From Orrella marina (GTDB taxonomy: Bacteria; Pseudomonadota; Gammaproteobacteria; Burkholderiales; Burkholderiaceae_B), in contig NZ_CP028901.1 in assembly GCF_003058465.1 (NCBI RefSeq), positions 2,418,001 through 2,482,000 on the forward strand: 64,000 bases of DNA, given 5' to 3'. The notes beneath the pieces were generated by a model. It saw only the letters and a program-made list of their open reading frames with translations. It did no database searches and was not told the origin of the DNA. Below, piece after piece: positions 37,550 to 62,209 of the stretch. Every line of letters starts with the position of its first letter. Within the stretch, counting starts at the first letter, position 1. The position numbers and the translations under genes are program-made.

Positions 37550-37625
37550 GCGGGAATAGCTCAGTTGGTAGAGCGCAACCTTGCCAAGGTTGAGGTCGCG
37601 AGTTCGAGACTCGTTTCCCGCTCCA
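37550..37625 (+). tRNA. tRNA-Gly (GCC)
   Basis: A 76-nt cloverleaf: acceptor GCGGGAA / TTCCCGC, discriminator T, encoded CCA, D-arm AGCTCAGTTGGTAGAGC, anticodon loop TTGCCAA with GCC at 37583-37585, and T-loop GTTCGAGAC. The 3' end is directly followed by foreign-looking DNA with an integrase, so this gene is the probable attachment site of the island to its right. Confidence 0.97.
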
Positions 37626-37667
37626 ATTTATGCTCTATAGATTTCCACTGAGGTCTATAGGTCGTTG

Positions 37668-37693: not shown

Positions 37694-37813
37694 AGTTCCA
37701 GCGAAAGCCACAGAAACCCACCTACAACCAGCGTTTTTGAAGCCAAAGAATGCGCGCGACGTCCGTTCCGGGTCGTTGCTGGGGTTGGATCGGGAGGATG
37801 GGCTGCATCAGGA

Positions 37814-37830
37814 CTAAGTCCATGACTTAG
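37814..37830. repeat. perfect inverted repeat before the integrase
   Basis: CTAAGTC / GACTTAG around CAT, immediately upstream of the integrase start. It overlaps the AGGAG ribosome site, so it could sequester the integrase start or be an operator. The preceding 37694-37813 shows nothing else. Confidence 0.4.
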
Positions 37831-37836
37831 GAGCTG

Positions 37837-39246: not shown

Positions 39247-39906
39247 CTGGACGCAAGGCTCACGTTGCAGCGGCCGCAGCAAACGCATCAGTTCTCGCCA
39301 GTATCCCGCACATACAAGGGGATCGCACAGGATCAGTGGGTGGACCGCGAGCTTGTGCAGCGGAATTGCCTTGTGTTCCAGTAGCTCGTGGCGGGCAGGG
39401 ACGGCAACCAGCAAGGGATCGTGCCAGATCGGCTCGGCGACGATGCCTTCTCCCACATCAGCCGTGTGCGCAAATCCGGCTGTGAAGTCGCCGGAAAGCT
39501 GGCCGCGAATTTGCCCTGCCAGGGGAACTTCGGACAGACGCACCTTGATTTCGGGCTCTTCCTCTCGGCAACAAGCCAGAAAAGTAGACAGCCGGCGATC
39601 GACCGAACCGTCGGAAACCGCGATTCGCAGACACGCCTTCAGGTCCGCCGCGATAGTCCTGGCGTTCTCCTGCGCATGCTCCAGAACGGTAAACAACCGG
39701 CGGACATCCTGCAAAAAAGCCGCACTGGCTGGTGTCAGCTGAGTTCCACGACGATCACGATCAAAAAGGGTAACGCCCAGATCATCTTCCAGCTCCTTGA
39801 TTGTTCTCGACAGCGGCGGTTGCTCGATATGCAAACATTCGGCTGCGCGGGTGAAATGTAGTTCTTCGGCCAATGCAAGAAAGCACTTGAGGTGTCGTAG
39901 CTCCAT
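39105..39906 (-). pseudogene. LysR-family transcriptional regulator with an internal deletion
   Basis: From the ATG at 39906 the protein MELRHLKCFLALAEELHF is a normal LysR winged helix (HIEQPPLSRTIKELEDDLG) and most of an effector domain up to YWRELMRLLRPLQREP. The frame then goes wrong. The genuine C-terminus (QHRDVIARPLAVASAV, ending LHARAQG) continues in another frame to a TGA at 39105. About 40 residues around the expected substrate-loop GYGVG motif are absent, so this is a deletion rather than a one-base slip. It sits between the integrase fragment and the siderophore operon. Confidence 0.75.
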
Positions 39907-39937
39907 GTGGGCAATGTTCCGATTGATCGTTGCATCT

Positions 39938-40690
39938 TCAAACTTCAGGCTGCGTGATTGCCGCAAGAGTGATGCGTGAATGAATGGACGATACGCGCGG
40001 TATGCAGACTGCCGTCAGTACCTCACGGTCCATCCATGCGTATCGAACCTCCACGCAGGCTCCACCTCGCCACGATCCACACCAGTCCTCAGTCAATCGC
40101 AGTACGAGTGCATTGGCTTGGCAGGAAACGATTTCGGCGGCATGGAAGTCTTTGTATTGGCGCGAGAATGGATAAAGCGCCTTGTAAAGAGCCTCCTTGG
40201 CGGAAAACAGAAGTGTCAAAGAGCGAGCGCGGCAGGGAATGTTTCGCTCCAGGCACTCCAGTTCGCGATCACGGCCGACGCTGTGCCGTATATCCTGCGC
40301 GATCTCGGCATCGATCAACATCTCCACATCAATGCCCACGGCATGGAATCTGGTGGCCGGCGCCGCCATGGCGACGGCCACCGACGCGCAATGACTGATG
40401 CTGCCGAGGATCCCAGGGGGCCAGATGGGAAGTCGATCTTGCACGGGCAATGGAAACTCGGCATCGACCCCCATCTCCGATAACGAATGGAAGGCACAAA
40501 GCCGCCCTGCAAGGAATTCTGTTCGCCGCTTGTGACTCATGCCCGTCACCATGGACTGCCCCAGCCAACTCGTCGGGGCATGCACGAGGACATCCATCGA
40601 CGTCCGGCTGGTTGGCAGTGCCAGCCCGGACAGTCTGATGTCAGGCGACAATTCCAGAAGATCGGCCAGTCCGAGAATCCACGCCGTCAT
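39938..40690 (-). CDS. 4'-phosphopantetheinyl transferase (Sfp/EntD type)
   Basis: 250 residues. The two family motifs are present: VGIDVEMLIDAEI and FSAKEALYKALYP, the Mg/CoA-binding residues of Sfp/EntD enzymes. It would attach the phosphopantetheine arm to the carrier domains of the HMWP2/HMWP1-like synthetases encoded upstream on the same strand. It is the last gene of the siderophore operon, 36 bp after the salicylate enzyme. In Yersinia the equivalent gene (ybtD) lies outside the cluster; here it is included. Confidence 0.9.
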   Translation of the reverse strand: MTAWILGLADLLELSPDIRLSGLALPTSRTSMDVLVHAPTSWLGQSMVTGMSHKRRTEFLAGRLCAFHSLSEMGVDAEFPLPVQDRLPIWPPGILGSISHCASVAVAMAAPATRFHAVGIDVEMLIDAEIAQDIRHSVGRDRELECLERNIPCRARSLTLLFSAKEALYKALYPFSRQYKDFHAAEIVSCQANALVLRLTEDWCGSWRGGACVEVRYAWMDREVLTAVCIPRVSSIHSRITLAAITQPEV

Positions 40691-40726
40691 GCGGCTGTCG
40701 GGATAAGGGAATGCGGGAGCAATGTT

Positions 40727-43666
40727 TCAATGCTCCTTCGAGGAAATCAGGTAGGGGCCGACTGATGTCAGCTTTTCGCAGGTTTCCTCCCACTCGCGCT
40801 CTGGCGTCGAATGCGGCACCAGTCCCGCACCGGCCTGTAGCGACGCACGGCCTGCATCTCGATACGCAGAACGAAGCACCAGGGCCGCATCCAGCGAACC
40901 GTCGCTCTCAGCGATCAGCACGCAGCCACTGTAAAGCCCCCGCGCTCGGCCCTCATGCCTGTTGATGCTTTCCAGTGCTTCCCTCTTCGGGATACCGGAT
41001 GCCGTGACAGCGGGAAACAGCTTCTCGAATGCAGTCCAAGCGCTGGCGCCAGGGGTTAGAACGCCCTTCACATGCGACGCCAGATGCTGCACGCTGCCGC
41101 GCTCCTGGACGGTCATGAACTCGTCCACGACGACAGATTCGGCCTGGCATGCCTGCAGCATCTCCTGGACGGCGAGCTTCACCGAAACCGCATGCTCCGC
41201 GATCTCCTTCACATCCGATTCCAGTTCTTTGCGCAACTGCTGATCTTTCTCCGGCGCACCTGTCAATGCGCGGGTTCCAGCCAAAGGCTGAGTCGCTACG
41301 TTGCCCTCAGCATCAACGGTCACGACGATCTCAGGACTAAAGCCATAGGCCTGGAACTCGCCATCTTTCAAAAGGAATGATCGGACCGGCGTATTGGATT
41401 TGCGCCCGGCGTAGTAACTGGCCACCATATCCACCCCGGACGGAATTTCGACAGCGCGGGAGAGGATGACTTTCTGATACCGACCCTGTCTCATGTCCTG
41501 TACCGCCGAAGCCACGATATCGCGGTACTGCACACTCCCCGTAGAGCGCACGTCCAGAGCGATAGGCGAATCGACTCGTGGAAGCCCGTTCTTTTCGGCC
41601 GCTTCAACGATCGCTACCAGCTGAGGCATTTCTGCGCTGTCCAGCGTACGCAGTTGCACAGTTCCAAGTCGAATGCGGATTTCGCTTTTCGGTATGACGA
41701 TGGTGAGCAAGGGGCCTGCGCTGTGCGGATTTTCCAGGCCATACGTCAGATAGGCGAACTCGAATTCGGCACGGCCATAAGCACGCCAGTTATCGAACGG
41801 GATGTCGGCCAGGGCCTGTTCGATGCTCTCGCTGACAGACGTTGATCGCCACGAATTCCCATCACTGCGGCAAACCGTTCCATCCGAATCTACTGTGATC
41901 CTCATGGCGCATTCCAGACCCAATGTCCATTCGCCGTGACGTTCGTACAAGACGTAGTTGATGGTTTCGTGCCGAATAACTTCGGCCACTTTGACCGCCA
42001 ACTCGAACGGCGGCGCATTCGTTGTCATCGACTCATGCAGGTAACTCGAAGACTTGGCATCCGGAGAAACTGAGGCGCGTTGGAGGGCGACCGCGACCAG
42101 GCGGCGCTTGTCGACCTTCTTGGCCGCGGTCAGGGGCCATTCGAAGATGGTTTCGATCTGATCCGGCACCTTGTAGTCGCTCAAACCACCTTCGCGCAGC
42201 GCCGTCTTGATGTGTAGAGGGTCAATCGTCTGACTACCTTCCGGCTTGATGAAAACGCAGATGCGTTCGCCCAGCAGTTCGTCTGGGACACCGACCGCGG
42301 CGGCGACATGGACGCCGTGAAGCAAACTGATCGCTTCTTCGATCTCGGCCGTAGAGATTTTTTCGCCGCAGCGGTTGATCTGTTCCTTGATGCGACCTTC
42401 CACAATCAGATTGCCATTCGCGTCGCGACGTACCAGGTCGCCGGAACGGTAAAAGCCATCCTCGGTGAAACTGGACGCGTTCTGTACTGGTGCCCGGAAG
42501 TAGCCACGAATCGTGTACGGACCTCGGGTAAGCAACTGCCCGGCTTGACCTTCAGGAACGTCATGGTCGTCCTCATCGACGATTCGAACCTCATCTTTGG
42601 GGGACAAGGGGCGCCCCTGGGTCTGGATGATCGTGTTCAGCGGATCGTCCAGGCGCGTGTAGCACAGCAGCCCCTCGGCCATGCCAAAGACCTGCTGCAA
42701 TTTGCAGCCGATGACATCGACCAGTTGCCGGGCCAATCCCGCCTCCAGACGGGCACCGCCCACCTGTATCAGCTTCAGGCTGGATAGGTCACTATCCTCC
42801 CATTCGCGGCCCTCCACCCACAGCTTGGCCAGCGGCGGCACCAACGCTACATGCGTCACCTTGTACTTCTCGATCAGCGGCATGGCTTCATCGCAACTGG
42901 CAGAGACCGATGTCACGACGGTGCCGCCGCACTGAAAGGTTCCGAGCACACCCGGAGATGCGAGCGTAAAGTTGTGCGCGGCCGGAAGCACCGCCAGGAA
43001 CACCATTTCCCGATCGAATCCACAAAGTCTGGCGGAAGCGGTGAAGTTGTAGAAATAGTCCCCATGGGTGCGGGGAATCAGCTTTGGCATTCCCGTTGTG
43101 CCGCCCGAAAGCAGCAGTACAGCGGTGTCGCGCCCATCCTGCTCGGGCCAGGGGCATGCGGAACCCTTGAGTGCAGTCAGGATCTGGACGTTGCGTGTTT
43201 CGTGCTCGACGTCTCCATCCATTACAACCAACCGGAGGCTCTCATGCCTGGCCTGCATGCGTTGTGCCAGCGTCAGATAGTCATGTTCGCCAACATCATC
43301 GGGAATGAAGTAGGCCGTCGGTTGCGCCAGGGCCATCAATGCATCGATGTCCTGCTCCCGTTGATTGGGCATCGCCATCACGGGGATGACCCCCACACGC
43401 AGGAGCGCGAAGAACGAATAGAAGAAGCCGAAGGTGTTTGGCATATGCACCATGGCATGGTCGCCAGCACGCAGGCCAGCGGCATGCAAGCCGCTGGCAA
43501 TGTGCTCGACACGGTCGTGCAACTGCGCATAGGACAAGCATTGACCCGTCTCATTGATCAGCGCAATTCGGTCGCCGTAGTTGCGTGCCCACTGCGCAAG
43601 ACAATGCCCAAGAGGCATGGGTTTATCGCATGTGCTCATGGGCAATTCGGAAATGTCGGCTTTCAT
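40727..43666 (-). CDS. fused salicyl-AMP ligase / salicylate synthase (YbtE-YbtS fusion)
   Basis: 979 residues from the ATG at 43666, with AAGGAG six bases upstream. Residues ~1-535 are a DhbE/YbtE-type aryl-AMP ligase: LLLSGGTTGMPKLIPRTHG, the A-loop FYRSGDLVRRD, GRIKEQINRCGEKIS, and the catalytic Lys region PLTAAKKVDKRRL. After a short linker, residues ~560-979 are a YbtS/Irp9-type salicylate synthase of the chorismate-utilising family: RYQKVILSRAVEIP, GSVQHLASHVKG, TASGIPKREALESIN, YSGCVLIAESDGS. One chain would convert chorismate to salicylate and then to salicyl-AMP for loading on the HMWP2 aryl carrier. In Yersinia these are two proteins. No frameshift or stop lies at the junction. Confidence 0.9.
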   Translation of the reverse strand: MKADISELPMSTCDKPMPLGHCLAQWARNYGDRIALINETGQCLSYAQLHDRVEHIASGLHAAGLRAGDHAMVHMPNTFGFFYSFFALLRVGVIPVMAMPNQREQDIDALMALAQPTAYFIPDDVGEHDYLTLAQRMQARHESLRLVVMDGDVEHETRNVQILTALKGSACPWPEQDGRDTAVLLLSGGTTGMPKLIPRTHGDYFYNFTASARLCGFDREMVFLAVLPAAHNFTLASPGVLGTFQCGGTVVTSVSASCDEAMPLIEKYKVTHVALVPPLAKLWVEGREWEDSDLSSLKLIQVGGARLEAGLARQLVDVIGCKLQQVFGMAEGLLCYTRLDDPLNTIIQTQGRPLSPKDEVRIVDEDDHDVPEGQAGQLLTRGPYTIRGYFRAPVQNASSFTEDGFYRSGDLVRRDANGNLIVEGRIKEQINRCGEKISTAEIEEAISLLHGVHVAAAVGVPDELLGERICVFIKPEGSQTIDPLHIKTALREGGLSDYKVPDQIETIFEWPLTAAKKVDKRRLVAVALQRASVSPDAKSSSYLHESMTTNAPPFELAVKVAEVIRHETINYVLYERHGEWTLGLECAMRITVDSDGTVCRSDGNSWRSTSVSESIEQALADIPFDNWRAYGRAEFEFAYLTYGLENPHSAGPLLTIVIPKSEIRIRLGTVQLRTLDSAEMPQLVAIVEAAEKNGLPRVDSPIALDVRSTGSVQYRDIVASAVQDMRQGRYQKVILSRAVEIPSGVDMVASYYAGRKSNTPVRSFLLKDGEFQAYGFSPEIVVTVDAEGNVATQPLAGTRALTGAPEKDQQLRKELESDVKEIAEHAVSVKLAVQEMLQACQAESVVVDEFMTVQERGSVQHLASHVKGVLTPGASAWTAFEKLFPAVTASGIPKREALESINRHEGRARGLYSGCVLIAESDGSLDAALVLRSAYRDAGRASLQAGAGLVPHSTPEREWEETCEKLTSVGPYLISSKEH

Positions 43667-43677
43667 CACAATCTCCT

Positions 43678-44463
43678 TTATTTGAAAGCGCACGTCGCTA
43701 AGTGCGCGGAATGCGGTTCAAAACGCCGTCTGATGTGCTCCATAAAGGCTCTCGGGCGACGAGTGACATAAAAGTGTTCGCCAGCGATGGCTACCGGCCC
43801 ATCGACGTCGGATAGCAAGCATCTCCATGCTTCGACTTCCGATCGCCATGCCTCCTGGTCTGCGCTGCCGTAGATCAGCAACGCCGGCGTTTGCAGTCGT
43901 CGGCGTTCCCCCAGTTTCTGGGGATGCCAATAGCTTTCGGTTGCCTTGAAATCCGCCCGCAGCATTGGCATGAACACAGACCACAAGTCCGGCTCGTTCA
44001 ACAGTTCCTGTGCGTTTCCACCAATGGCGACCAATTGCTCAAGGAATGCGCGATCTTCAAGGTGGCTGATGAGGCGCCGGCCATGCAGGTGCGGCGCATG
44101 GCAACCGGACAGAACCAGGCCGAGCGGCGCCGCGCCGCGCTGTTCCAGCCGAACGCAAACCTCGTAGGCCACCTGGGCGCCCATGCTATGACCGGCGACC
44201 ACGAGTTGCTGTTGGGCGATCTGATGTGCGTCGATGGCCATCAGAACCTGATCGGCCAGTTCGGCAATACCTGCCGCGCAGGCCTCGCTCATTCGTTGAT
44301 CGCGTCCGGGATAGACTGCCAACCAGACCTGCCAGCCACAAGGTCGCAGATCGCGCCAGCTGCGGAACGCGCTCGCACTCCCTCCCGCGAAGGGGCACAG
44401 CACGAGATGGATATCCTCTGCGCAGGGTTCGCTTGTTGCGCACAACGGCATCAGGTCAGCCAT
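43678..44463 (-). CDS. irp4: type II thioesterase of the siderophore operon
   Basis: 261 residues of the alpha/beta-hydrolase fold: LVLCPFAGGSASAFRSWRD at the start, nucleophile elbow VVAGHSMGAQVAYEV with the active Ser, and a late His in IAGEHFYVTRR. It matches YbtT/PchC-type editing thioesterases that remove wrong acyl groups from carrier domains. It overlaps the imine reductase gene by 8 bp and is followed after 11 bp by the salicylate enzyme. Confidence 0.9.
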   Translation of the reverse strand: MADLMPLCATSEPCAEDIHLVLCPFAGGSASAFRSWRDLRPCGWQVWLAVYPGRDQRMSEACAAGIAELADQVLMAIDAHQIAQQQLVVAGHSMGAQVAYEVCVRLEQRGAAPLGLVLSGCHAPHLHGRRLISHLEDRAFLEQLVAIGGNAQELLNEPDLWSVFMPMLRADFKATESYWHPQKLGERRRLQTPALLIYGSADQEAWRSEVEAWRCLLSDVDGPVAIAGEHFYVTRRPRAFMEHIRRRFEPHSAHLATCAFK

Positions 44464-45589
44464 CCGTGCCTCCTGCGCTTCCGTGATCCGTCTGCGCCCC
44501 GTCCCAGGTCACGACTTGGGGTGGCGACAGGCGTCGCTCGGCTGCAGGCGGAACAACGCGCAGGACGTCGAGCCAAAGACGCGCCAGAGCCAACTGGTAT
44601 GCGGGATCGAATCCCGTCGGTACGCGCTCGCCGTCCAGAACCCGGCAGAAGTTCTGCAGAACGCCGGCAACGCCAACGGCGCCATCGACCTCAAAGGCAT
44701 CCCGCCAGGTGGCGGGCGCATCGTGCAGCACCTCGCAGGTCGGACGCGCATAGACGGCCTCGTCCGGGGCATAGCGATACATCGTGCGCTCCTGGCTGTC
44801 GTGTTGCGCGTCGTGGAAATGACCTGTCCACAGCACCGGCCCGTAGCTTGCTTCCAGCGTGAGATAGCCCGCAGGCCACATCAGACTGGCCTGGTGCATC
44901 ACCAGGCTGTGCATGTCGGGATCGGACGGATCGAGAAAGGCTTGCAAGCGCAGTACCGCCCGGCATCCATCCGGCAGCGCCAGGCTCACGGGCACGAAGT
45001 GCGAGTCGGCGCCCTCCAGCGTCTGAACCTGTACTTGACTGCCATCAGGGATACCGCAGGCTTGCAGCAGCAGATCCAGCGTGGAGTACAACAACTGGCG
45101 ACTGGTCGTCAGATGCGCCGCGCATGGCATCTCGTCGCCAAGGAGCTGCATGACATGGGTTGCCCGGTCTATCCAGCAACGGCCCGCCGGCAGGTGCGGA
45201 TAGAAGCTGTTGACCCAGTACCGCAGCCCACGCTGTTCGGCGAGTTTCTGGAGCCGTTCGACATCATCGGGATGCAAGGGGTGTTCCTGCACCACATGAA
45301 TGCCACGGTTCAACAGTTCAGCAGCCAGTTGACTGCCTTCGCCCTGGGCTACCGTGGATCGAACCACCACGCAGGCAATGTCGATGTCTTCGGGAAGCTG
45401 CTCCAGATGGGTGTAGAGCGGGACGCCAAAGTCGTGCACCAGTTGCTGCGATCTTCGGCTGCCTCGGGCCAGCAGGCCTGCCAACTGGAGGCCTGGCCGG
45501 GACTGAAGGAAGGCATTGAGATACACCTCGCCGAACTTCGCGCCGACGACCAATACGCGCCGGCTCTTGCTGGATTTGAACCGGATCAT
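44456..45589 (-). CDS. irp3: thiazolinyl imine reductase (YbtU/Irp3/PchG-like)
   Basis: 377 residues from the ATG at 45589, which overlaps the HMWP1 stop (ATGA). The Rossmann start is RVLVVGAKFGEVYLNAF, characteristic of this Gfo/Idh-related family, and VVQEHPLHPDDVERL and YWVNSFYPHLPAGR follow as in Irp3. It reduces one thiazoline ring of the siderophore to thiazolidine with NADPH while the intermediate is bound to the synthetase. An in-frame ATG at 45625 would only add residues overlapping HMWP1. Confidence 0.92.
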   Translation of the reverse strand: MIRFKSSKSRRVLVVGAKFGEVYLNAFLQSRPGLQLAGLLARGSRRSQQLVHDFGVPLYTHLEQLPEDIDIACVVVRSTVAQGEGSQLAAELLNRGIHVVQEHPLHPDDVERLQKLAEQRGLRYWVNSFYPHLPAGRCWIDRATHVMQLLGDEMPCAAHLTTSRQLLYSTLDLLLQACGIPDGSQVQVQTLEGADSHFVPVSLALPDGCRAVLRLQAFLDPSDPDMHSLVMHQASLMWPAGYLTLEASYGPVLWTGHFHDAQHDSQERTMYRYAPDEAVYARPTCEVLHDAPATWRDAFEVDGAVGVAGVLQNFCRVLDGERVPTGFDPAYQLALARLWLDVLRVVPPAAERRLSPPQVVTWDGAQTDHGSAGGTDG

Positions 45590-48500
45590 TTCGTAGACTC
45601 CGTGGAATTCGTGCTGGAGAACCACCGCTGAACATCGCCTGCCAGCGCAATGGCAATATCCGCATCAGCCATGAGTTGCCAGTGCGTGGCCGTCACGGTC
45701 AGGGTCTGCGCGTGTGCCTTCCAAGCCGACCATTCGCGCACCGCCGTCGTCCAGTGAGCGGGATGACGGTCTGCCTCGATCCACAAGACGGGATCCGGAA
45801 TGGATCGCCCGATATGGTGCTCCGCCAGCAGGTTCAGCAGCCGGAAAATGCGCGTCAGCCACTGACGCGCATTTTCCGTGGGCATTGCCTGAGCGATGAC
45901 GCCCGCCTGAACTGCACCGACAACGAACGCTTCGATGCGGGCCGATTCGTCCAGTGCTTCCCAGTTTTCTGGCAGAACGATCTGGTGTTCGCCGGCTAGC
46001 ATCACCATCAATGCGGACAGATCCTCGACCGCGAAGTCAGCCCCGTACACCGGGTCTATCAACACCAGGCGAACGGCCTTGCCGCGACCATGCAGCATGC
46101 GTGCGACCTCGGCAGCGACTGCGGCGCCGTAGGACCATCCCACCAGGATGTGTGGCTCCCGGCCGAGTTTCGTCCTCATCGCGTGCAGGTAGCCAGAGGC
46201 CAGAGCCTGAAGGCTGTCGACTTCGATCTGTTCCGGAGCCTGCAAGCCCCACACCTGGGCATCCAATGCTTCGGCAAACGACATGTACGAAGCCACGCCG
46301 CCGTCTGAAGCGTGAAAGACGAACACGCGTTCGTGCGTATGCCCTTGCGTCAAGGGTACGAGAACATTTTTCATATCCGGGCTCCTGATTCCTTCGAGCG
46401 TGCCGCAGAACGCCGCCAAGGTGCGATGGGCGAACAGCGCCTGCAGGCTGGCGCCCGCAACGCCCATGCGGTTGAGCTGGGCAATGACCCGCGTAGCGAT
46501 CAGGCTGTCGGCGCCGCTATGGAAGAAGTCACTTTCCGGGCTGACCGGCCTGCCGAGGAAGGCCTGCCATACCTGCGCGACGCTATTGATCAGCGCATCG
46601 TCCGATGCTTCGCGGGCGTTGGACGATATGGCCGCGCCATCGACCACTGGCTGCGTGCTCGTCGCGGGTACGGCCGCGGCCAAGGCCCGCGCGCCTGCAG
46701 AGGCATCGACGGCGAACATGTGCTGAGGCTCGCTTTGTCGCACTTCGACATCCGGCAACGTCTTACCAAAATGCCGCACCAGCGACTGCCTGATCGCCTG
46801 GCAATCGACGTGGGCGGCGCGTACCAGGCGGGCCACGATCACATGCTGATGGATGGGAGAGTCCGCGGTTTCCGGCCAGGCCAGTTCGAGCGAGAAGCCG
46901 CTACCTTGCAACGCCTCGCACCACTGGGCCAGATTCAGCATGGCCCGGTCGTCGATGATCCGGTGATCCTGGTAGTTGCCCAGCCCTTCGATGAAGCCCA
47001 CGCTGGCCATCTGCAACAGGCTGTCCCGGTGAGTGGCCTCGATCAGCACCAGACGTGCGCCTGGCTTCATCAGGCTGCCGATACGGCGCAGCGACCGTAC
47101 GACGTGGCTGGCGTCGTGCATGACCTGTGCGGCAACCACGAGGTCGTGGCTTTCGGCCGGGTACGTCGCATAGTCAATCGGCTGATTGATGTCGAAAATG
47201 CTGTAGGTCAGTTCGTCGTGCCCAGCGAATCGCTTGCGGGCTTCATCCAGGAAGAGCGTCGAGACATCGGTGAAGTGATAGGTTTCCAGGTGGTCGCCAA
47301 GTGCTTCCAGCACGGTGCCCGTGGTGGCTCCGGTGCCGGCACCAACCTCCATGACGCGCAGGCGGCGCTCCGGCCGGGCCGACTGACCCAGCCTCTGCAT
47401 AATATGCGCCACGTTGCGAATCACGCATTGCGCAGCCGGGTTCTCCGCATAAAGTGCTCGCGTGATCGCGTAGTCATCGACAAAGAACAGTTCCAGGGCC
47501 GAGCAAGTGCCTTGCAGCAATTGCTCATGCCGCTCCACGTTGCGGTCCAGGTAGTGAGCCAGCGTGTCGCCCCAGGCGCTGGGCGGCATGGCTGGCGGGG
47601 CCGGCATGTCATTCAAGGGCCGCAGGCACATGAAGTTCCCATCGTCCTGGCTCAGCCAGCCCACCGTCGTCAGCGCCCGAAGCCATTGGCGCACGATGCG
47701 CTCGAACTGCGGCAGCACTTGCAGGCATCGGTAGATGGCATCCAGTGCCACCGCCTGGCGTTCCTGCACGAACAGGCCATGGTTCGCCAGGGTGCTGGCA
47801 ATGCCGTGCAGCGCACGGGTTTCCAACGCCTGCCACACCGCATCGAAGTGGCTCTGCTCGGCTGGCTCCAGGCCAGCCAATTCCGGCAGAACCCCCAGGT
47901 CAGGCTCCGTGAAACCGGCCGGGTCGTAGCTGCGAGGTTTCGCCACCACCTTGACCAGCAGATTTCCGCCAACGCCATCGTGCTGGGCATCGGCCTGAAA
48001 GACGCCCTGCTGCCGGAGTGCGACGGCCTCGATTTCTCTCGGATCGACTTGGCTTGCGGCCGCGAACCACGCGTAACGCGCGAAAGGCAGAGGCTCACCT
48101 TGCCCCTCGGGGTGTTTCCATATTCCGGGCTCTTGCATACGCTGGGGAGCGCTCGCCACCGCTTTCAATATGGCATGAAAATCCCTGAACATGGCCTGTG
48201 CGGCGCCTTCGGCCAACACCTCGTCCATGCAATACCAGCTGAACACCAGCTCACCGCCGATCTCCATGACCTGGTGATCCAGCCACACCTGTGGGGTCTG
48301 CGTGAACACATGCACGGGGTCGCCCAGCAGGCTGGTCATGGCCTGATCGATGTCTAGCCCATCCAGCGTCATGCCCAGCATGCTGGTGAATACCACCGGC
48401 ATCAGCGGCTGATGCGATTGCCCACGAATGCGGCCAAGCTCCCGCAGCAGTTCGACGCCATTCACCTGGCTGTGTGCCAGGTGCTGGCGCAAGCGCCGCT

Positions 48501-48729
48501 GGGTTCGCTCGATGCGCTTGCGCAGGGTGCGGGATTCATCGCCCAGATCGAAATCGACCAGCAGTACAGAGGTAAAGTCGCCAATCAACTGGCTCATCTG
48601 CGGATGCACGGGACGCCGATTGAAGAAGGTGAGGTTCAAGGTGAAGTTAGGCCAGCGCGCCCAGCGCTCCAGCGTCACGGCGAACAGCGTCATCAACGCA
48701 GCCGAAGGGGTCACCCCCAGGATCGCCAT
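45586..48729 (-). CDS. irp1: HMWP1-like synthetase, C-terminal segment (Cy3 end, MT, PCP, TE)
   Basis: 1047 codons in a frame different from the preceding segment. It opens in the middle of a heterocyclisation domain (VTPSAALMTLFAVTLERW, FTLNLTFFNRRPVHPQ). An SAM methyltransferase follows with VMEVGAGTGATTGTVLEAL, then a peptidyl carrier with SGADSLIATR and a type I thioesterase with ILVGWSYGAAVAAEV. This is exactly the end of Yersinia HMWP1. The apparent ATG is probably not a true start: the AAGGAGG before it has no spacing, and one extra base in the CCCCC run at 48714-48718 would join it to the upstream segment. The thioesterase would release the finished siderophore. Confidence 0.85.
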   Translation of the reverse strand: MAILGVTPSAALMTLFAVTLERWARWPNFTLNLTFFNRRPVHPQMSQLIGDFTSVLLVDFDLGDESRTLRKRIERTQRRLRQHLAHSQVNGVELLRELGRIRGQSHQPLMPVVFTSMLGMTLDGLDIDQAMTSLLGDPVHVFTQTPQVWLDHQVMEIGGELVFSWYCMDEVLAEGAAQAMFRDFHAILKAVASAPQRMQEPGIWKHPEGQGEPLPFARYAWFAAASQVDPREIEAVALRQQGVFQADAQHDGVGGNLLVKVVAKPRSYDPAGFTEPDLGVLPELAGLEPAEQSHFDAVWQALETRALHGIASTLANHGLFVQERQAVALDAIYRCLQVLPQFERIVRQWLRALTTVGWLSQDDGNFMCLRPLNDMPAPPAMPPSAWGDTLAHYLDRNVERHEQLLQGTCSALELFFVDDYAITRALYAENPAAQCVIRNVAHIMQRLGQSARPERRLRVMEVGAGTGATTGTVLEALGDHLETYHFTDVSTLFLDEARKRFAGHDELTYSIFDINQPIDYATYPAESHDLVVAAQVMHDASHVVRSLRRIGSLMKPGARLVLIEATHRDSLLQMASVGFIEGLGNYQDHRIIDDRAMLNLAQWCEALQGSGFSLELAWPETADSPIHQHVIVARLVRAAHVDCQAIRQSLVRHFGKTLPDVEVRQSEPQHMFAVDASAGARALAAAVPATSTQPVVDGAAISSNAREASDDALINSVAQVWQAFLGRPVSPESDFFHSGADSLIATRVIAQLNRMGVAGASLQALFAHRTLAAFCGTLEGIRSPDMKNVLVPLTQGHTHERVFVFHASDGGVASYMSFAEALDAQVWGLQAPEQIEVDSLQALASGYLHAMRTKLGREPHILVGWSYGAAVAAEVARMLHGRGKAVRLVLIDPVYGADFAVEDLSALMVMLAGEHQIVLPENWEALDESARIEAFVVGAVQAGVIAQAMPTENARQWLTRIFRLLNLLAEHHIGRSIPDPVLWIEADRHPAHWTTAVREWSAWKAHAQTLTVTATHWQLMADADIAIALAGDVQRWFSSTNSTESTK

Positions 48730-50048
48730 TCCTCCTTCAAGGTCGTCCAGCTCTGGCGATCCAGGGTCGCCTGATAGGTCGTGAAACTGGGCTGATAGCC
48801 GTCCGGATCGCCATTGGACTGCGGCAAACTCGGCGCAGGCGGAAGCTCAGCCAGCAAGTCCTGCCAGTAGCACCAGGACCTGAGCCAATCCTCGGTCTGG
48901 CGACGTGCCTGTTCACCGAGCACGTAGTCGCGGAAGGTGATCTGCAACGGATCCGGACTGCCACCACGGTAGAACGCCGCCAAGTCGTCCATCATTACCT
49001 TGAAGCTCTGCACGTCGAACAGTAGTAGATCCAGATTCATGTGCAGCCGGTAGCGTTCGCCATCCAGCTCCGAAGCGATCAGCTCGAACAGCGGCCAACG
49101 CTCTGCCGGCAGCACACGATAGGACAGCTCTTGCCGGGTTTGCGCCAGCGCCCGTTCCTGTTCGTCGGCGGAAAGTGCGGACAGGCTGCTGCGCTCGATA
49201 CGGTACTCGGGGACATGTTCCAGAATCCGCTGCTGACCATCGTCGCCAATCACCATGCGAAGCATGTCGTGACGCTGTATCAGGGCATTCCAGGCCTGCT
49301 CAAAACGCTTCAGGTCGAACTGGTCATGGCGCAGGTCCCACTCGAACAACACATGGCAGGCCACGCCGCCGTAGTCGATCAGGCTGGTGCGTCCCAACCA
49401 GTACGCATGCTGGATCGGCGTCAGCGGGAATGGCTGGAAGCGACCGGCTGCATCGTGAAGCAGCCGCGTCGGTTGCGACGGCCCCTCGGTAGCTTGCGCC
49501 GCTTGCCTGGAGATCAATCGGCTCAGGCCTGCGATAGTCATCTCCCGATAGGCTTGTTCGGCGTCGAGGCGTACCCCGAGGCGGCGCTGGATGGTGCTGC
49601 TCAGTTCCAGGAACAACAGCGAATCCAGCCCCAATTGCACCAGATCGCGTTTGGCCGAGAGCCGAGATGAGTCATCCAGCCTCAGTTGAGCCGCGATCTG
49701 CGCTGCCAACCACTGCTCCACCGTGCCGGCATCTGCCAGCTTGTCCGCCGACAGGTCCGGGGCCTGCGCTTGCACGGCCTTGGCGGGCTTGCCTGCCACC
49801 GGCACCGCAGGCTGCCGCGCCGTCTCACGCTGGAGGCCCAGCAACTGCTTGCGGCCATCATCCAGATGCTCGGTCAACACCCTCATCGCCAGGCGATAGG
49901 GAGTCCCGCGCGACAGTGCCTGCTCCAGATGCCAAAGGCCTTCGGCATCACTCAGTACCCCCATGCCGTCCTGCGCGAGAGCTGCCTGCAATGCTTCGTC
50001 AGCTGCACGTCCGGTTTCGCCCCAGGCGCCCCAGCCGATGGAAATCAC
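48711..50048 (-). CDS. irp1: HMWP1-like synthetase, middle segment (KR end, ACP, Cy3 start)
   Basis: 445 codons bounded by frameshifts on both sides. It begins at a GTG inside the ketoreductase tail (ISIGWGAWGETGRAADEAL) and contains an acyl carrier with LVQLGLDSLLFLEL. The first part of a heterocyclisation domain follows (FPLTPIQHAYWLGR, with the cyclisation motif DLLLFDVQS). It ends at LKEEWRSWG, where an uninterrupted Cy domain would continue GVTPSAAL, which is how the next segment begins. On its own it could not be a working protein. Confidence 0.85.
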   Translation of the reverse strand: MISIGWGAWGETGRAADEALQAALAQDGMGVLSDAEGLWHLEQALSRGTPYRLAMRVLTEHLDDGRKQLLGLQRETARQPAVPVAGKPAKAVQAQAPDLSADKLADAGTVEQWLAAQIAAQLRLDDSSRLSAKRDLVQLGLDSLLFLELSSTIQRRLGVRLDAEQAYREMTIAGLSRLISRQAAQATEGPSQPTRLLHDAAGRFQPFPLTPIQHAYWLGRTSLIDYGGVACHVLFEWDLRHDQFDLKRFEQAWNALIQRHDMLRMVIGDDGQQRILEHVPEYRIERSSLSALSADEQERALAQTRQELSYRVLPAERWPLFELIASELDGERYRLHMNLDLLLFDVQSFKVMMDDLAAFYRGGSPDPLQITFRDYVLGEQARRQTEDWLRSWCYWQDLLAELPPAPSLPQSNGDPDGYQPSFTTYQATLDRQSWTTLKEEWRSWG

Positions 50049-53000
50049 CTTGACCGGACTTTCGTCCCCCAGGCGGCGGCTTCATACGCCAGACCATCCA
50101 GATAGGCGCTCGCCAAGGCATGGCCGGCCTGTCCCGCACTGCCCAGGGCGGCGGCGGCCGATGAGTACAGTAGCAGGTAGGGCCTGCCACCGGCCCGGCT
50201 CAGTCTATCGTACAGATGCCGCGCCGCGCGAGCCTTGACCGCCAGCACAGGCGCAAGCCGACGGGCATCCCAGGACAAGATCGGTCCATCGTCGAGCACG
50301 CCAGCGGCATGCACGACACCGGCCAGCCCGCCGTCAGCCGACAGGCGATCCAGCGCACGATCGAGATCGGCCGGATCAGCAACGTCGCAGACCACGCACC
50401 TCGCCAAGATCGAATGGTGCTGTTGCAGCCTGGCGATGAAGTCAGCGGCGTCCTCCTGCTTCCGATGCGCAAGCAATGCGATTCGACCTGCGCCGCGACT
50501 GGCCAGCCATTCAGCGGTCAAGCGACCCAGGCCGCCTAGCCCGCCCGTCACCACGTGCCAGCCGTCGCCCCGCAAGCTGTGTCCATTCAGCGCGGGAGCG
50601 GCATAGCGGTGTGGCTGTAGTCGCGGCACCCATGCGTGGCCTTCTCGCACGGCAACCCACTGCCCGGATTTCGCCGCCGCATGCAGGCCAACGACCAGAT
50701 CCTGCCAGGGCGCGTCCGCCGCGAGATCGACCATCAGGATGGAACGCGTGGCAGCTGCTGGGGCGGCAAACTCGATCGACGCGGTGCGTGCCAGACCCCA
50801 GACAGCGTGATGAGCCGCACTGACGTTCTCGTCGCCAACCATCGGCCAGGCCGCCCGCGTGACCATCACAATGCGGCTGCCGTCCAGACCCGAGGCTTCT
50901 TGAATCGCACCGAGCACGGCTTCGGCAACGCCATCCAGGCCAGCGTGTTCCGGAAGCAGCACCAGCATGTCCCCGGCGTCCTCATCCAGGGTGACGCCCG
51001 CCTGAGCCAGTTCGGACGCCAGACCGGGGGCCTTTTCCCCGAACAGCCGCAGCCGCCTGCCGGCAACGGCATCCGTTGCCCGGCCAAGTTGATCCCAGCA
51101 CCAGTCGTAGTGAGTGCCTGGCGTTGCGGAGAGCTTCGGCAATCCTTCACCGTCATCACCGAAGGACGCCAGTGGACTCTGCCAGAGGCCATTGGGCCCA
51201 AGCAACGTCAGGTCGATGCTCGGCTGCTGGTGCAGACGGGCCTGCCATTGCAGGCGAACCAGACCCAACCAGTCAGGTGCCTGTGGTGGAACATCGATCG
51301 TGGGAACGTGTCTGCCATCGCCGTGGCGGCGGGCCATTTCACGACTGGCCTTGCCAACTCGGTCAAGCAATTGACTGTCCTGCCCAGCGCAGTCGGACCA
51401 ATCCGCCAGATAGCTGCCGTCATTGGCGAGCGCCTGGCCCAATACGCCAGAGCCTAGCCGCACCGGTGTGGACTGTTCAGCGGACGTACCGGGCGCCGTC
51501 GCGAGCACAATGTGCTCGCTCATGCCGGACGTGGCAGTACCGTCGTCCGGGAGCCATTCGACGGTGGCGAAGCCGGCGGCAAGACATTGACCGCGCCAGT
51601 GCGCCGTGCTCAGGAACAGTTCGCCGCCACGGGCCTGCTCATCATGCAACGGCAGAACCAGCGGCCCGAACACAAAATCGAACAGGCGCATGGGCCGGGT
51701 GATCTCGCGCATCAGCAAACGGCCACCCGGCTTGAGCAAGAGCAGCAGGTTCGCCAGTGCATCCCCCACATGCTGCGTGGCGTGAATGACGTTGGCGGCC
51801 ACGATCAGGTCAAAATCGCCAGCCGTGAATCCTTGGACCTCGGCACGTTGCTGAAGATCGAACTCCCGGTACTCAACGAAGCCGTAGTCGGCGAACTTCT
51901 GCTCGGCGCGGCGCGTGAAGATCGGCGAGATGTCCGTGAACACGTAGTGCACGTCCGGCTGGCTGGACAGTGCCGGCAGTACCCAAGCAGTGGTGCCGCC
52001 CGTGCCGCCGCCCACCTCCAGCACCCGGTATGGCGGCAGCGGTTTTCCGGGTTCACCGCGGCTGCGCACCAGGTCGGCGACCACACCCGCGGCTATCTGA
52101 TTGAAATAGCGCCCGAAGCTGAAATCCTGATACAGGACTTCCACGCCGCTGGAGGCGCCCTCCGGGAAGATCACGGCGACGGGTTCGATCGCGCCGCTCA
52201 TCATTTCGTACAAGCTGTCGCCCGCGCGCTGCACGGTTTCCGCGATGACGTCCAGGCCCTCGCAGTAACTTTTAAGCTCGGCGAGCAGTTGTTCATATTC
52301 TGCGTGAGGTGCGGCAACCCGTGTGCGGTAGCGGCCGTCCTGTTGTTGCAGGTAGCCATCTTCGGTGCAGGCATTGAGCATCCGCACCAGCAATTGGCGA
52401 TGCCGGGGCAGGAGCCGTCCATCGCGCAGGATATCCACTGCAGTCACGCCCAGGTCAATACGATCTCCCGCGCAGCGGCGCAGCAATCGGTCGATACAGA
52501 TGGCATGCAGCTTGACCACGCACCGATACAGGGCCTCCAGGCGGGGCAAATCCAGCTCGCGTGCTTCGCGTGTCACGACATTGCGCGCAGTCGGCAGTTG
52601 CGTGCCGCGCGAGAATTGCGGCGCCGCGCTCGATGCAGCGACGGCGGCTTCACGCCAGTAGCGTTGGCGTTCAAAGGGATACAGCGGGGCATGACATTTA
52701 CCCCCCGAGCCTCGCAGCAGTTGCGGCCAGGCCAGATCGACGCCCGCGACGAACAGTTGCATCAGGGGCTGGCGCAGCGATTGCCTTGCGGACTGGTTGC
52801 GTCGGGCGCTGGCGATCCAGTGGGCGCCAGCGCCCATCTCCCGTTGCCCGATACCGACCAAGGTAGCGTCCGGCCCCATTTCCAGGAACAGGCTCGCACC
52901 GTCGTCGATGGCCTTGCGCAGGCACTGGACGAAGCGCACCGGGTTGCGCATGTGCCGCGGCCAGAAGTCCGCTTGATTCAGTCGCGCGGCATCCACTACC

Positions 53001-55303
53001 TCGCCGGTCAGGCCGGAGATCAGCGCGATATCGCTCTGTCTCGCCTGCAGCGCGCCCGCTGCATGCCGGAACTCCGGCAGAATCGGGTCGAGCATCCGCG
53101 AATGTGCCGCGCCCGTAACCGCCAGCGGATTGCTGCGCACGCCCATGCCTTCGAGTTCGGTGGCCAGTTTGGCGATCAGCTCGCGTTCGCCGGAGAAGAC
53201 CAGGTGACGCTCACCGTTGCAGGCCGCAAGGTCGAGGCCCAGCCGCACGGCAACCGGCATGACTCGTGCCTCGTCGGCAAAGACCGAAAGCATCGCACCG
53301 CCGCGGCAGCGATCCATCAGTGCGCCACGCCGCCGCACCAGCGGCATGACCTGCTCGTGGCTGTAGTGGCCGGCCACGACCGCCGCTGCGAATTCACCGA
53401 CCGAATGACTCAGCACCATGTCCGGCGCCATCCCCAAGGCCTGCCAATGCGCAGCCATCGCCAGTTCGAAGGCGACGATGGCGGGCTGTGCGTACTCCAT
53501 GCGCTGGAGCAAATCGCTGTTCGGCTCCACCAGCGCCGTTCGCAATTGCTCGGCGAAAGCACTATCCAGGGTCTGGAACACCGCCAGGCAGCGATCCAGG
53601 CCTTGGGCAAAGGCGGGAGAGGCTTCATACCAGCTGCGTGCCATGCCCGGCCACTGCGACCCCTGGCCGGTGAAAAGCCATGCCCGTTTGCCTGCTTCGC
53701 CGCATCCGGCCTGGATCAGAATGTCGTCCTCGCCCTGGGCGAAGGCGTTCAAGGCATCCACCGTCTCACCGCATACGGGCACGGCCAGCCGCCAGGGCAT
53801 ATCGAGCAAGCGGCCCGTCAGCGCCGTATGGGCCACGTCAGAGACAGGCTGGGTTTTCAATGCCTGTGCATAGGCGCCGGCCAGGCGCCGCAACGCGCCT
53901 TCGTTGTTGGCACTCAGCAGCAGCACGTCCTCATCAACGCCATGGGTTTGCCCATCCTTGGGCTGATGCATCGAACGCAGGGCCTGCGGCAAGGACGCCA
54001 CAACCATATGGCAGTTGGTGCCGCCGATCCCGAAGGACGAGACGCCTGCGATGCGAACCGGCGCCTCCCAGGGCTGGGCCTCGCGCGGCACGTAGAAAGG
54101 ACTGTCTTCCAGGTGCAATGCCGGATTGGCCCGCTGGAAGCTCACGCACGGCGGGATCGCACCGCGCTCGACCGCCAGCACCGCCTTGAGGAAGCTGGCG
54201 ATACCGGCAGCCGTATCCAGGTGCCCCATGTTGCTCTTGACCGATCCCAGCGCGCAGGCCGGCCCCTTGCCGACGGGATGGAATACACCCTGCAGCGCCT
54301 GCACCTCGATCGAATCGCCCAGCGGAGTGGCCGTCCCGTGCGCCTCGATCATGCCGATCTGCTCACTGCGCACTCCGGCAAGCGCCCACGCATCGGCAAT
54401 CACCTCCCGCTGCCCTAGCACAGAGGGCGCTGTATAGCCGACTTTCTGGCTACCGTCGTTGTTGATGGCGCTACCCAGTACGACCGCCACGACCGGATCG
54501 CCGTCGCGCAGCGCATCTGACAGGCGCCGCAGCACCACGGCTGCCACGCCATTGCCGCCATAGGTGCCCTGGGCCTGTGCATCGAACGGGCGGCAATGCC
54601 CGTCGGGCGAGAAGATCATGCCCTGTTGGTACAAGTAGCCGCTCACCTGCGGGAAGGAGACGGCCACACCACCGGCAATGGCCATGTCGCATTCGCCGGA
54701 TCGCAGGCTCTCGCATGCCAGGTGGGTAGCCACCAATGAACTGGAGCAGGCCGTCTGCACGGACAGGGCCGGGCCGCGAAGATCCAGCTTGTAGGCGGCG
54801 CGTGTCGCCACGTAGTCCTTGTCATTGCCCATCAGGGACTGCAGGCTGCGCACGTGCGCCACTTCGGCGATGTTGATCGCCTCGCGCCCTGGATAGGTGC
54901 TGATCCGGGCAGAGCCGAACACGCCGGTCTTGTGTGGCACAGCTCGGGGTGCATAGCCAGCGTGCTCCAGCGCGTGCCAAGCCATCTGCAGGAACAGGCG
55001 CTGCTGTGGGTCGAGCAGTTCGGCTTCCTGGCGGGAGTAGCCGAACAGCTCGGCGTCGAAAGCCTCGGCGTCGGGCACCACGGTTCCGCGCGGCACAAAG
55101 GCCGGATCGTCGATGACCGATGCCGGAATCCCAGCATCCAGCAGTTCCTGTCGCGAAAACTGCCGACTGCATTCACGCCCGGCCAGCAGGCTGGCCCAAT
55201 AGGCGTCGCTGTCGGCCGCTTCCGGGAACCGGCTGGCATGACCGATCACCGCGATCGGCTCGCAGTCCGGATAGTGCTGCTTCAAGCGTTCTTCGATAGT
55301 CAT
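50045..55303 (-). CDS. irp1: HMWP1-like synthetase, N-terminal segment (KS, AT, MT, KR)
   Basis: 1752 codons. Ketosynthase with active Cys186 in VQTACSSSL, EAHGTATPLGD and SNMGHLDTAAG. Acyltransferase with LSHSVGEFAA (SHSxG instead of the usual GHSxG). A C-methyltransferase with VLEVGGGTGGTTAW near residue 1125, and a ketoreductase with VVTGGLGGLGRLTA near 1580. These would add and dimethylate a malonyl unit. The KR segment GSAGQAGHALASAYLDG lacks the expected catalytic Tyr and Asn. The frame ends at WGTKVRSR; restoring one base at 50056-50057 gives WGTKVPVKVISIGWG, continuous with the next segment. The ATG, preceded by GGGGAG, overlaps the HMWP2 stop. Confidence 0.88.
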   Translation of the reverse strand: MTIEERLKQHYPDCEPIAVIGHASRFPEAADSDAYWASLLAGRECSRQFSRQELLDAGIPASVIDDPAFVPRGTVVPDAEAFDAELFGYSRQEAELLDPQQRLFLQMAWHALEHAGYAPRAVPHKTGVFGSARISTYPGREAINIAEVAHVRSLQSLMGNDKDYVATRAAYKLDLRGPALSVQTACSSSLVATHLACESLRSGECDMAIAGGVAVSFPQVSGYLYQQGMIFSPDGHCRPFDAQAQGTYGGNGVAAVVLRRLSDALRDGDPVVAVVLGSAINNDGSQKVGYTAPSVLGQREVIADAWALAGVRSEQIGMIEAHGTATPLGDSIEVQALQGVFHPVGKGPACALGSVKSNMGHLDTAAGIASFLKAVLAVERGAIPPCVSFQRANPALHLEDSPFYVPREAQPWEAPVRIAGVSSFGIGGTNCHMVVASLPQALRSMHQPKDGQTHGVDEDVLLLSANNEGALRRLAGAYAQALKTQPVSDVAHTALTGRLLDMPWRLAVPVCGETVDALNAFAQGEDDILIQAGCGEAGKRAWLFTGQGSQWPGMARSWYEASPAFAQGLDRCLAVFQTLDSAFAEQLRTALVEPNSDLLQRMEYAQPAIVAFELAMAAHWQALGMAPDMVLSHSVGEFAAAVVAGHYSHEQVMPLVRRRGALMDRCRGGAMLSVFADEARVMPVAVRLGLDLAACNGERHLVFSGERELIAKLATELEGMGVRSNPLAVTGAAHSRMLDPILPEFRHAAGALQARQSDIALISGLTGEVVDAARLNQADFWPRHMRNPVRFVQCLRKAIDDGASLFLEMGPDATLVGIGQREMGAGAHWIASARRNQSARQSLRQPLMQLFVAGVDLAWPQLLRGSGGKCHAPLYPFERQRYWREAAVAASSAAPQFSRGTQLPTARNVVTREARELDLPRLEALYRCVVKLHAICIDRLLRRCAGDRIDLGVTAVDILRDGRLLPRHRQLLVRMLNACTEDGYLQQQDGRYRTRVAAPHAEYEQLLAELKSYCEGLDVIAETVQRAGDSLYEMMSGAIEPVAVIFPEGASSGVEVLYQDFSFGRYFNQIAAGVVADLVRSRGEPGKPLPPYRVLEVGGGTGGTTAWVLPALSSQPDVHYVFTDISPIFTRRAEQKFADYGFVEYREFDLQQRAEVQGFTAGDFDLIVAANVIHATQHVGDALANLLLLLKPGGRLLMREITRPMRLFDFVFGPLVLPLHDEQARGGELFLSTAHWRGQCLAAGFATVEWLPDDGTATSGMSEHIVLATAPGTSAEQSTPVRLGSGVLGQALANDGSYLADWSDCAGQDSQLLDRVGKASREMARRHGDGRHVPTIDVPPQAPDWLGLVRLQWQARLHQQPSIDLTLLGPNGLWQSPLASFGDDGEGLPKLSATPGTHYDWCWDQLGRATDAVAGRRLRLFGEKAPGLASELAQAGVTLDEDAGDMLVLLPEHAGLDGVAEAVLGAIQEASGLDGSRIVMVTRAAWPMVGDENVSAAHHAVWGLARTASIEFAAPAAATRSILMVDLAADAPWQDLVVGLHAAAKSGQWVAVREGHAWVPRLQPHRYAAPALNGHSLRGDGWHVVTGGLGGLGRLTAEWLASRGAGRIALLAHRKQEDAADFIARLQQHHSILARCVVCDVADPADLDRALDRLSADGGLAGVVHAAGVLDDGPILSWDARRLAPVLAVKARAARHLYDRLSRAGGRPYLLLYSSAAAALGSAGQAGHALASAYLDGLAYEAAAWGTKVRSR

Positions 55304-61548: not shown

Positions 61549-61619
61549 GAGAAACCCTCTTCCTCTCCGTTTTCCTTGGGATTCCCCGGTACCGCGCCTG
61601 GGCGCATCACCCAGGGGCC

Positions 61620-62209
61620 TTATCGAACCTCCGCCAAGAAATGCCGGTTGAGCACCAGCACGTCTTCTTCCGAGAACCTGCCGGCATAGAACTGCAACTT
61701 GGCGTAGGCCTGGAACCACTCCACGTAGGTCCGCAGCAAGGCCAGCCGGGCCTGGTAGGACTGGCGTTCCGCCTGCAAGGCGTCGGTGTTGGTGCGTTCC
61801 CCGCCGTTCACGCTCTTGCGCATTGCGTCCACCAGCGCCGTGGCGTCGCTCACGTTCTGGCGCAAGGTGCGTATGCGCTCGGCGCTGGTGCTGAACACGC
61901 GGTAGTACTGCTCCAGCGTGGTGATGGTGGTGATGGTGGTGTTGGCGGTGTGTTCGAGTTCATAGCTCGCCTGTTCCCGCCGGTTGTTGGCCTGGCGCGT
62001 GCTGTAGTAGCTGGAGCCGCCGCTGAACAGCGGGATGGTGACCCGGATGACGAAGGAGGCGTCGACTGCGCGCACACAGCCTGGCTTCCCAGTGCCAGGG
62101 CCATCGCTAGGCACAGGCGTTTGGGTTGCAGGTGGAATGCGCCTCTAGGTGAGCGCTCCAGCGGAACCATCAAGGGGCTGACTGCGCCCCCATCCATCCT
62201 CGGTAACAT
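61620..62209 (-). pseudogene. TolC-family outer-membrane efflux protein with a large internal deletion
   Basis: The ATG at 62209 has GGAG nine bases upstream and encodes a plausible signal peptide (LCLAMALALGSQAVCAQ). Immediately afterwards, in a different frame, comes the C-terminal ~155 residues of a TolC-like channel (ASFVIRVTIPLFSGG, then long Gln/Asn-rich helices) ending at 61620. A complete protein would be about 430-480 residues, so about 750 bp are missing and the junction (~62060) is out of frame. It lies first in the siderophore operon, where it may once have encoded an exporter channel. Confidence 0.75.

What the first reader, a model, noticed from the sequence alone, without database searches (positions are those of the whole stretch)
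40727..43666. Salicylate synthase and salicyl-AMP ligase fused in one chain
A single uninterrupted 979-residue protein carries an aryl-AMP ligase half with all core motifs and a chorismate-using salicylate synthase half with its catalytic segments. In the classical yersiniabactin system these are two genes (ybtE, ybtS), and in pyochelin PchA/PchB/PchD are separate. A fusion would channel salicylate directly into activation. The clean Shine-Dalgarno start and good junction make a sequencing artefact unlikely.
Basis: partly seen in the sequence, partly recalled or inferred. Interest (0 to 1): 0.7.

Follow-up and report, generated by a model that had tools for sequence, protein, structure and literature searches.

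The report
Two-in-one siderophore enzyme, already known
One bacterial protein appears both to make salicylate and to activate it for building an iron-scavenging molecule; the two-in-one design is real here, but it occurs in many related bacteria and was already described in insect-killing bacteria.

Summary
Window 43666..40727 (minus strand) is one open frame of 979 residues: an aryl-acid AMP-ligase half (about 1-523), a variable joint (18 residues), and a salicylate-synthase half (about 542-979). The aligned active-site residues are kept and both halves look selectively maintained. It sits in a yersiniabactin-type locus on a genomic island at tRNA-Gly.

Likely mechanism: chorismate to salicylate to salicyl-AMP, then loading onto the aryl carrier domain of the Irp2-like synthetase. 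Channelling is possible but not shown here; the joint is variable.

Two side points. The ligase has a mixed specificity code (Ser where YbtE and PchD have Cys, plus Leu), shared by 55 of 122 fused sequences examined. And the Irp1-like synthetase reads as three frames here but as one in 5 of 5 relatives that cover both junctions, so the pathway may not work in this strain.

The parts
40727..43666 (-). fused gene, 979 residues: salicyl-AMP ligase plus salicylate synthase
42098..43666 (-). aryl-acid AMP-ligase half, residues 1-523 (P-loop 187-195 SGGTTGMPK, Asn232/Phe233/Ser237/Leu334 in the acyl pocket, Lys517)
   Evidence: roles of the motifs recalled except the specificity code (PMC3672683 passages)
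42044..42097 (-). joint, residues 524-541, 8-34 residues long in 52 fused proteins
40730..42043 (-). salicylate-synthase half, residues 542-979 (Lys732, Glu779, Thr798, Glu821, Glu824, His861, Tyr912, Arg932, Glu958, Glu961, Lys965)
43673..43678 (-). ribosome-binding sequence AAGGAG
43678..44463 (-). type II thioesterase (YbtT/Irp4-like)
44456..45625 (-). thiazolinyl imine reductase (YbtU/Irp3-like), TIGR01761 346 bits over cut-off 188.8
45586..48729 (-). Irp1-like synthetase, third piece: end of Cy, MT, carrier, thioesterase
48711..50048 (-). Irp1-like synthetase, second piece: carrier, start of Cy
50045..55303 (-). Irp1-like synthetase, first piece: KS, AT, MT, most of KR
55300..61719 (-). 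Irp2-like synthetase, 2139 residues: three carrier domains, two condensation-type domains, one adenylation domain with a methyltransferase insert; likely acceptor of the salicyl group on its first carrier domain
   Evidence: acceptor role inferred from yersiniabactin
39938..40690 (-). phosphopantetheinyl transferase (EntD-like)
62568..63581 (-). AraC-type regulator (YbtA-like position)
37550..37625 (+). tRNA-Gly (GCC), insertion site of the island

Best explanation
The protein is a bifunctional starter enzyme of a yersiniabactin-type siderophore pathway. Its C-terminal half turns chorismate, by way of isochorismate, into salicylate; its N-terminal half spends ATP to make salicyl-AMP and passes the salicyl group to the first carrier domain of the Irp2-like synthetase next to it. 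The fusion keeps the two enzymes in equal amounts and close together. Shown here: one frame, both folds by sequence, intact key residues, the gene neighbourhood, maintenance by selection. Inferred: the reactions, the substrate and the acceptor. Neither shown nor excluded: direct transfer of salicylate from one active site to the other.
For: Domain content and scores. The residues aligned with MbtI K205, E252, T271, E294, E297, H334, Y385, R405, E431, E434 and K438 are present in the window protein (roles recalled) and invariant in all 52 fused proteins aligned. dN/dS against Azoarcus taiwanensis is 0.26 for the gene, 0.21 and 0.28 for the halves. The neighbours form a yersiniabactin-type set: Irp2-like, Irp1-like with an MT domain beside KS-AT, reductase, thioesterase, PPTase, AraC regulator, and just past the window an MFS protein, two ABC half-transporters and a TonB receptor. 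No other match of the own genome to the salicylate synthase model passed the cut-off. Deleting pxbJ, the gene of the same architecture in X. szentirmaii, abolished compounds 1-6 and complementation restored them (PMC9396620 passages).
Against: No biochemical data for this protein. The ligase code is mixed: Ser237 is the residue of DHB ligases, Leu334 that of salicylate ligases. The Irp1-like gene is in three frames in this assembly, so the pathway may be dead here. The neighbouring PPTase shows dN/dS 0.94 against Azoarcus (250 codons), so relaxed selection in part of the locus is possible. The structure prediction did not finish.
Confidence: 0.9

Rival explanations
1. The fusion channels salicylate: the product passes from the synthase pocket to the ligase pocket without mixing with the cell's pool.
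For: Both activities in one chain; the architecture is kept across distant Pseudomonadota.
Against: The joint is 8-34 residues long and poorly conserved in 52 fused proteins; the one conserved spot near it, Tyr542, is also found near the N-terminus of many stand-alone synthases, so it is not a feature of the fusion. Vibrionaceae (7 of 33 loci) and Actinomycetota (11 of 33) have the two as separate neighbouring genes.
Confidence: 0.12
2. The ligase half prefers or also takes 2,3-dihydroxybenzoate, so the cluster makes a catecholate form.
For: Ser237 matches DhbE and EntE at code position 239 (PMC3672683 Table 1, passages). Vibrio anguillarum Irp5 is reported to use both acids (PMC12421891 passages).
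Against: Leu334 and Phe233 are the YbtE letters. All 21 Photorhabdus and 7 Xenorhabdus fused proteins that I looked at have the same letters, and the pxb products are built from salicylic acid (PMC9396620 passages). The own genome has no DHB dehydrogenase over the model's cut-off (best 177.5 of 300 bits). The Vibrio enzymes, seven rows, have Cys and Ile, so Ser is not needed for the dual use.
Confidence: 0.1
3. The gene is a passenger in a decaying island and does nothing in this strain.
For: Irp1-like gene in three frames, integrase without its catalytic domain and LysR gene cut short, PPTase dN/dS 0.94.
Against: The fused gene itself is open, with dN/dS 0.26 against Azoarcus; the three Irp1 pieces still show 0.17-0.23, so any break is recent or is a sequencing error. 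Selection before the break would leave the same ratios.
Confidence: 0.3
4. Assembly or sequencing artefact joining two genes.
For: None found for this gene.
Against: The same single frame in L001-L006 and in 115 of 120 listed matches.
Confidence: 0.01

Closest known systems
PxbJ of Xenorhabdus szentirmaii (piscibactin/photoxenobactin pathway)
   Same: Described as a bifunctional enzyme equivalent to YbtS plus YbtE (PMC9396620 passages). Xenorhabdus and Photorhabdus matches of 965-996 residues have both halves and the same ligase code letters.
   Different: About 49-51% identity for the Xenorhabdus and Photorhabdus matches (PxbJ's own sequence was not fetched). The pxb Irp1-type enzyme lacks cMT1 and has an extra module; the window's has an MT domain beside KS-AT.
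YbtE and YbtS (Irp5 and Irp9) of yersiniabactin
   Same: Same two activities by homology and same kind of neighbours.
   Different: Two separate genes there. Plasmid-borne YbtS is about 42% identical to the synthase half. YbtE has Cys at code position 239, the window Ser.
Irp9 and Irp5 of Vibrio piscibactin
   Same: Same activities; genetic evidence published (PMC12421891 passages).
   Different: Separate genes, synthase first, in 7 of 7 Vibrionaceae loci.
MbtI of mycobacteria and PchD of Pseudomonas aeruginosa
   Same: Solved relatives of the synthase half and the ligase half.
   Different: Stand-alone enzymes.

Membership tests
PxbJ-type fused salicyl-AMP ligase/salicylate synthase | ligase half then synthase half in one frame | tested here: met
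PxbJ-type fused salicyl-AMP ligase/salicylate synthase | ligase half groups with other fused ligase halves | tested here: met
   70 fused rows plus P0044 form one clade (SH-aLRT 99) among 81 rows; only 11 unfused rows, without YbtE or PchD
PxbJ-type fused salicyl-AMP ligase/salicylate synthase | synthase half groups with other fused synthase halves | tested here: inconclusive
   11 changes on a 99-row tree (15 with the stricter label); fused rows are clustered but not one clade
MbtI/Irp9 salicylate synthase | TIGR03494 over its cut-off and catalytic residues | tested here: met
MbtI/Irp9 salicylate synthase | makes salicylate from chorismate | not testable with these tools
   needs enzyme assay
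salicyl-AMP ligase | specificity code with Cys at 239 and Leu or Ile at 330 (GrsA numbering) | tested here: inconclusive
   Ser and Leu: one of the two letters fits
2,3-dihydroxybenzoate-AMP ligase | TIGR02275 over its cut-off | tested here: not met
   577 bits against 723.55
yersiniabactin-type gene cluster | Irp2, Irp1, reductase, thioesterase, ligase, synthase, AraC regulator, ABC pair, TonB receptor | tested here: met
   Irp1 in three pieces
yersiniabactin-type gene cluster | product is yersiniabactin | not testable with these tools
   needs chemistry

The most novel reading that the evidence does not exclude
Fusion changed the ligase's gatekeeping: because salicylate is supplied by its own second half, the pocket residue that shuts out dihydroxybenzoate (Cys) could drift to Ser, so that in many fused enzymes selectivity comes from supply in place rather than from the pocket. 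In one search Ser occurs in 55 of 122 fused ligases and in none of the 18 free-standing ligases of Actinomycetota (11) and Vibrionaceae (7). Against: many of the 55 are near-copies (13 of 70 fused rows in the thinned set, five C/S changes on the tree), and the free-standing sample is small.
Probability: 0.1. Interest if true: 0.4.

Novelty: new member of a known kind. Interest (0 to 1): 0.15.

Why it matters
It adds a horizontally moved, yersiniabactin-type example near Orrella to a known fused-enzyme family, and shows that the fusion is the usual form in a broad set of Pseudomonadota rather than an oddity. The family offers natural unfused relatives (neighbouring genes in Actinomycetota, reversed order in Vibrionaceae) for testing whether joining two successive enzymes helps, and whether it loosens ligase specificity.

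Tried and rejected
Sequencing artefact: rejected, because the same frame is seen in relatives. Conserved linker motif: Tyr542 looked conserved in 96% of fused proteins, but it also stands near the N-terminus of many stand-alone synthases, so it was dropped. One origin of the fusion: the ligase tree agrees, the synthase tree does not; left open. DHB substrate: see rivals. A second copy of the tRNA-Gly 3' end to mark the island's far side: none with up to 3 mismatches. Structure prediction of the fused protein: not finished after 26 collecting calls, so no model is used and no fold search was run. Paper searches: six; apart from PxbJ I saw no other explicit account of the fusion, but I saw listings, abstracts and passages only, and most subscription papers are not held. 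The NCBI-style names (salicylate synthase or salicyl-AMP ligase for the whole chain) show that databases already hold such proteins under one-half names.

Limits: one search scored only the 7999 candidates sharing most words and listed 120; loci came from six peptide patterns, so proportions are not prevalences. The labels fused and alone rest on my BLAST thresholds. The four non-PxbJ-type leftovers of the 120 (P0023, P0034, P0037, P0048) have both halves, one of them shorter than my threshold; P0044 has the ligase half only.

Full report
What is there. The frame 43666..40727 on the minus strand is open for 979 residues with AAGGAG six bases before its ATG. Pfam and NCBIfam place an AMP-ligase in residues 17-523 and a salicylate synthase in 559-974. 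The salicylate synthase model scores 498.5 bits, over its cut-off of 325.15; the dihydroxybenzoate-AMP ligase model scores 577, under its cut-off of 723.55. By sequence the nearest solved structures are a salicylate-AMP ligase (5wm2), DhbE and PchD for the first half, and MbtI and Irp9 for the second.

Are both halves sound? Aligning the second half with MbtI and counting along the alignment, MbtI residues K205, E252, T271, E294, E297, H334, Y385, R405, E431, E434 and K438 fall on K732, E779, T798, E821, E824, H861, Y912, R932, E958, E961 and K965. Their roles are recalled from the MbtI literature. All eleven, and K517 of the ligase half, are invariant in 52 of 52 aligned fused proteins. Against the Azoarcus taiwanensis copy, dN/dS is 0.26 for the gene, 0.21 for the ligase half and 0.28 for the synthase half.

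The joint. Between Leu523 and Tyr542 the 52 fused proteins have 8 to 34 residues (window: 18) with little conservation. Tyr542 and the letters after it occur near the N-terminus of many stand-alone synthases, so they belong to that half. I see no sign of a special connecting structure, and no structure model was obtained.

How common is it? Of 120 listed matches among 7993, 115 have both halves by my thresholds, 115 of 115 in the same order; four more have both with one half short, and one has the ligase half alone. Names in that list include Photorhabdus, Xenorhabdus, Xanthomonas, Burkholderia, Ralstonia, Erwinia, Cupriavidus and Methylophaga. Of 33 loci fetched from named genomes, 6 are fused (Azoarcus, Comamonas, Pollutimonas, Erwinia, Pseudothauera, Cupriavidus), 11 (Actinomycetota) have the ligase gene followed by the synthase gene in another frame, 7 (Vibrionaceae) have synthase then ligase, and 9 are single or weak matches. 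Salicylate synthases are rare overall: 2 of 200 related genomes pass the cut-off, the window's own and G068, both fused; in a phylum sample 3 of 398 do, the own one included, two with frames of about 1000 codons (the second not checked for its ligase half) and one of 474. None of the eight other same-genus genomes has one over the cut-off, though several are incomplete.

History. On a tree of 81 ligase halves, the 70 fused ones form one clade with a single unfused row, P0044, at SH-aLRT 99; the unfused sample is small and lacks YbtE and PchD. On a tree of 99 synthase halves the label needs 11 changes, or 15 with a stricter label, so a single origin of the fusion is not shown; the Vibrionaceae synthases lie next to a fused one (P0115) there, while their ligases lie outside the fused clade.

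Surroundings. The gene is the sixth of a minus-strand run: Irp2-like synthetase, Irp1-like synthetase, thiazolinyl imine reductase, thioesterase, the fused gene, phosphopantetheinyl transferase (sixth if the Irp1 first two overlapping pieces are counted apart, fifth if Irp1 is counted as one). An AraC regulator stands upstream, and just outside the window come an MFS protein, two ABC half-transporters and a TonB receptor. G+C is 0.55 left of tRNA-Gly and 0.63 right of it to the window's end. The stretch 39257-53646 is 94.6% identical over 14,410 aligned bases to Azoarcus taiwanensis, where the locus also lies beside tRNA-Gly (GCC) and an integrase. This points to recent transfer of one island into the same tRNA gene. 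The host is a member of Burkholderiales near Orrella (RecN 63% to Orrella sp. 11846); it is not named by the tools.

Is the pathway alive here? The Irp1-like synthetase reads as three frames (50045-55303, 48711-50048, 45586-48729). In L001, L002, L003, L005 and L006, five of five loci that cover both junctions, one frame spans them. The pieces still show dN/dS of 0.17-0.23. Either the gene broke recently or the assembly has errors; the data cannot tell. Intact copies exist in the relatives.

Specificity. PMC3672683 (Table 1 and passages) gives Ser and Val at code positions 239 and 330 for DHB ligases and Cys with Leu or Ile for YbtE and PchD. By alignment with DhbE the window has Ser237 and Leu334, a mixed code. 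Of 122 fused ligases, 55 have this five-letter pattern (NFSAL), 64 have NFCAL and 3 others; the 18 free-standing ligases of Actinomycetota and Vibrionaceae all have Cys. All 21 Photorhabdus and 7 Xenorhabdus sequences checked share the window's letters, and their pathway uses salicylic acid (PMC9396620 passages), so the code does not argue against salicylate. The own genome has no DHB dehydrogenase over the cut-off.

Known or new? PMC9396620 (passages) states that PxbJ is a bifunctional enzyme equivalent to YbtS and YbtE and that its deletion abolished compounds 1-6, with complementation. So the architecture is in print. What I did not find in six paper searches is a test of channelling in such a fusion; that is a statement about these searches only. 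The V. anguillarum work (PMC12421891 passages) treats Irp9 and Irp5 as separate genes, which agrees. The sorangibactin paper (PMC10127202 passages) and the eLife metallophore survey (PMC12971057 passages) describe salicylate synthases without mention of the fusion in the passages I saw.

Verdict. Interest 0.15; the mixed code in fused ligases is the one thread worth a cheap test.

Noticed in passing
45586-55303: The Irp1-like synthetase reads as three overlapping frames; in 5 of 5 relatives covering both junctions it is one frame. Recent break or assembly error.
   Followed up: partly
37837-39246 and 38968-39966: Integrase frame with arm and core-binding domains but no catalytic domain, its end overlapping a LysR gene cut short. 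Azoarcus taiwanensis L001 has both with full domains; the window lacks most of about 800 bases present there.
   Followed up: partly
37550-64000: Genomic island at tRNA-Gly (GCC) with G+C 0.63 against 0.55 to its left; same island and same tRNA in Azoarcus taiwanensis at 94.6% identity over 14.4 kb. No second copy of the tRNA end was found.
   Followed up: partly
L017-L023: Vibrionaceae carry synthase then ligase, the reverse of the fused order, as separate neighbouring genes; their synthases group with a fused protein, their ligases do not.
   Followed up: partly
P0044 and P0121: Azorhizophilus paspali ligase alone (557 residues, 83% identity) and Brenneria salicis synthase alone (458 residues, 70%) fall among fused proteins: possible later separations or broken genes.
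   Followed up: no
39938-40690: The phosphopantetheinyl transferase gene shows dN/dS 0.94 against Azoarcus (250 codons), unlike its neighbours (0.17-0.40).
   Followed up: no
37650-37632 region, about 37547-37633: About 80 bases just after tRNA-Gly (query 148-233 of window 37400-49400) match plasmid-collection records of Neisseria, Acinetobacter and Clostridioides at 92-99%: this is the tRNA-Gly gene itself.
   Followed up: partly
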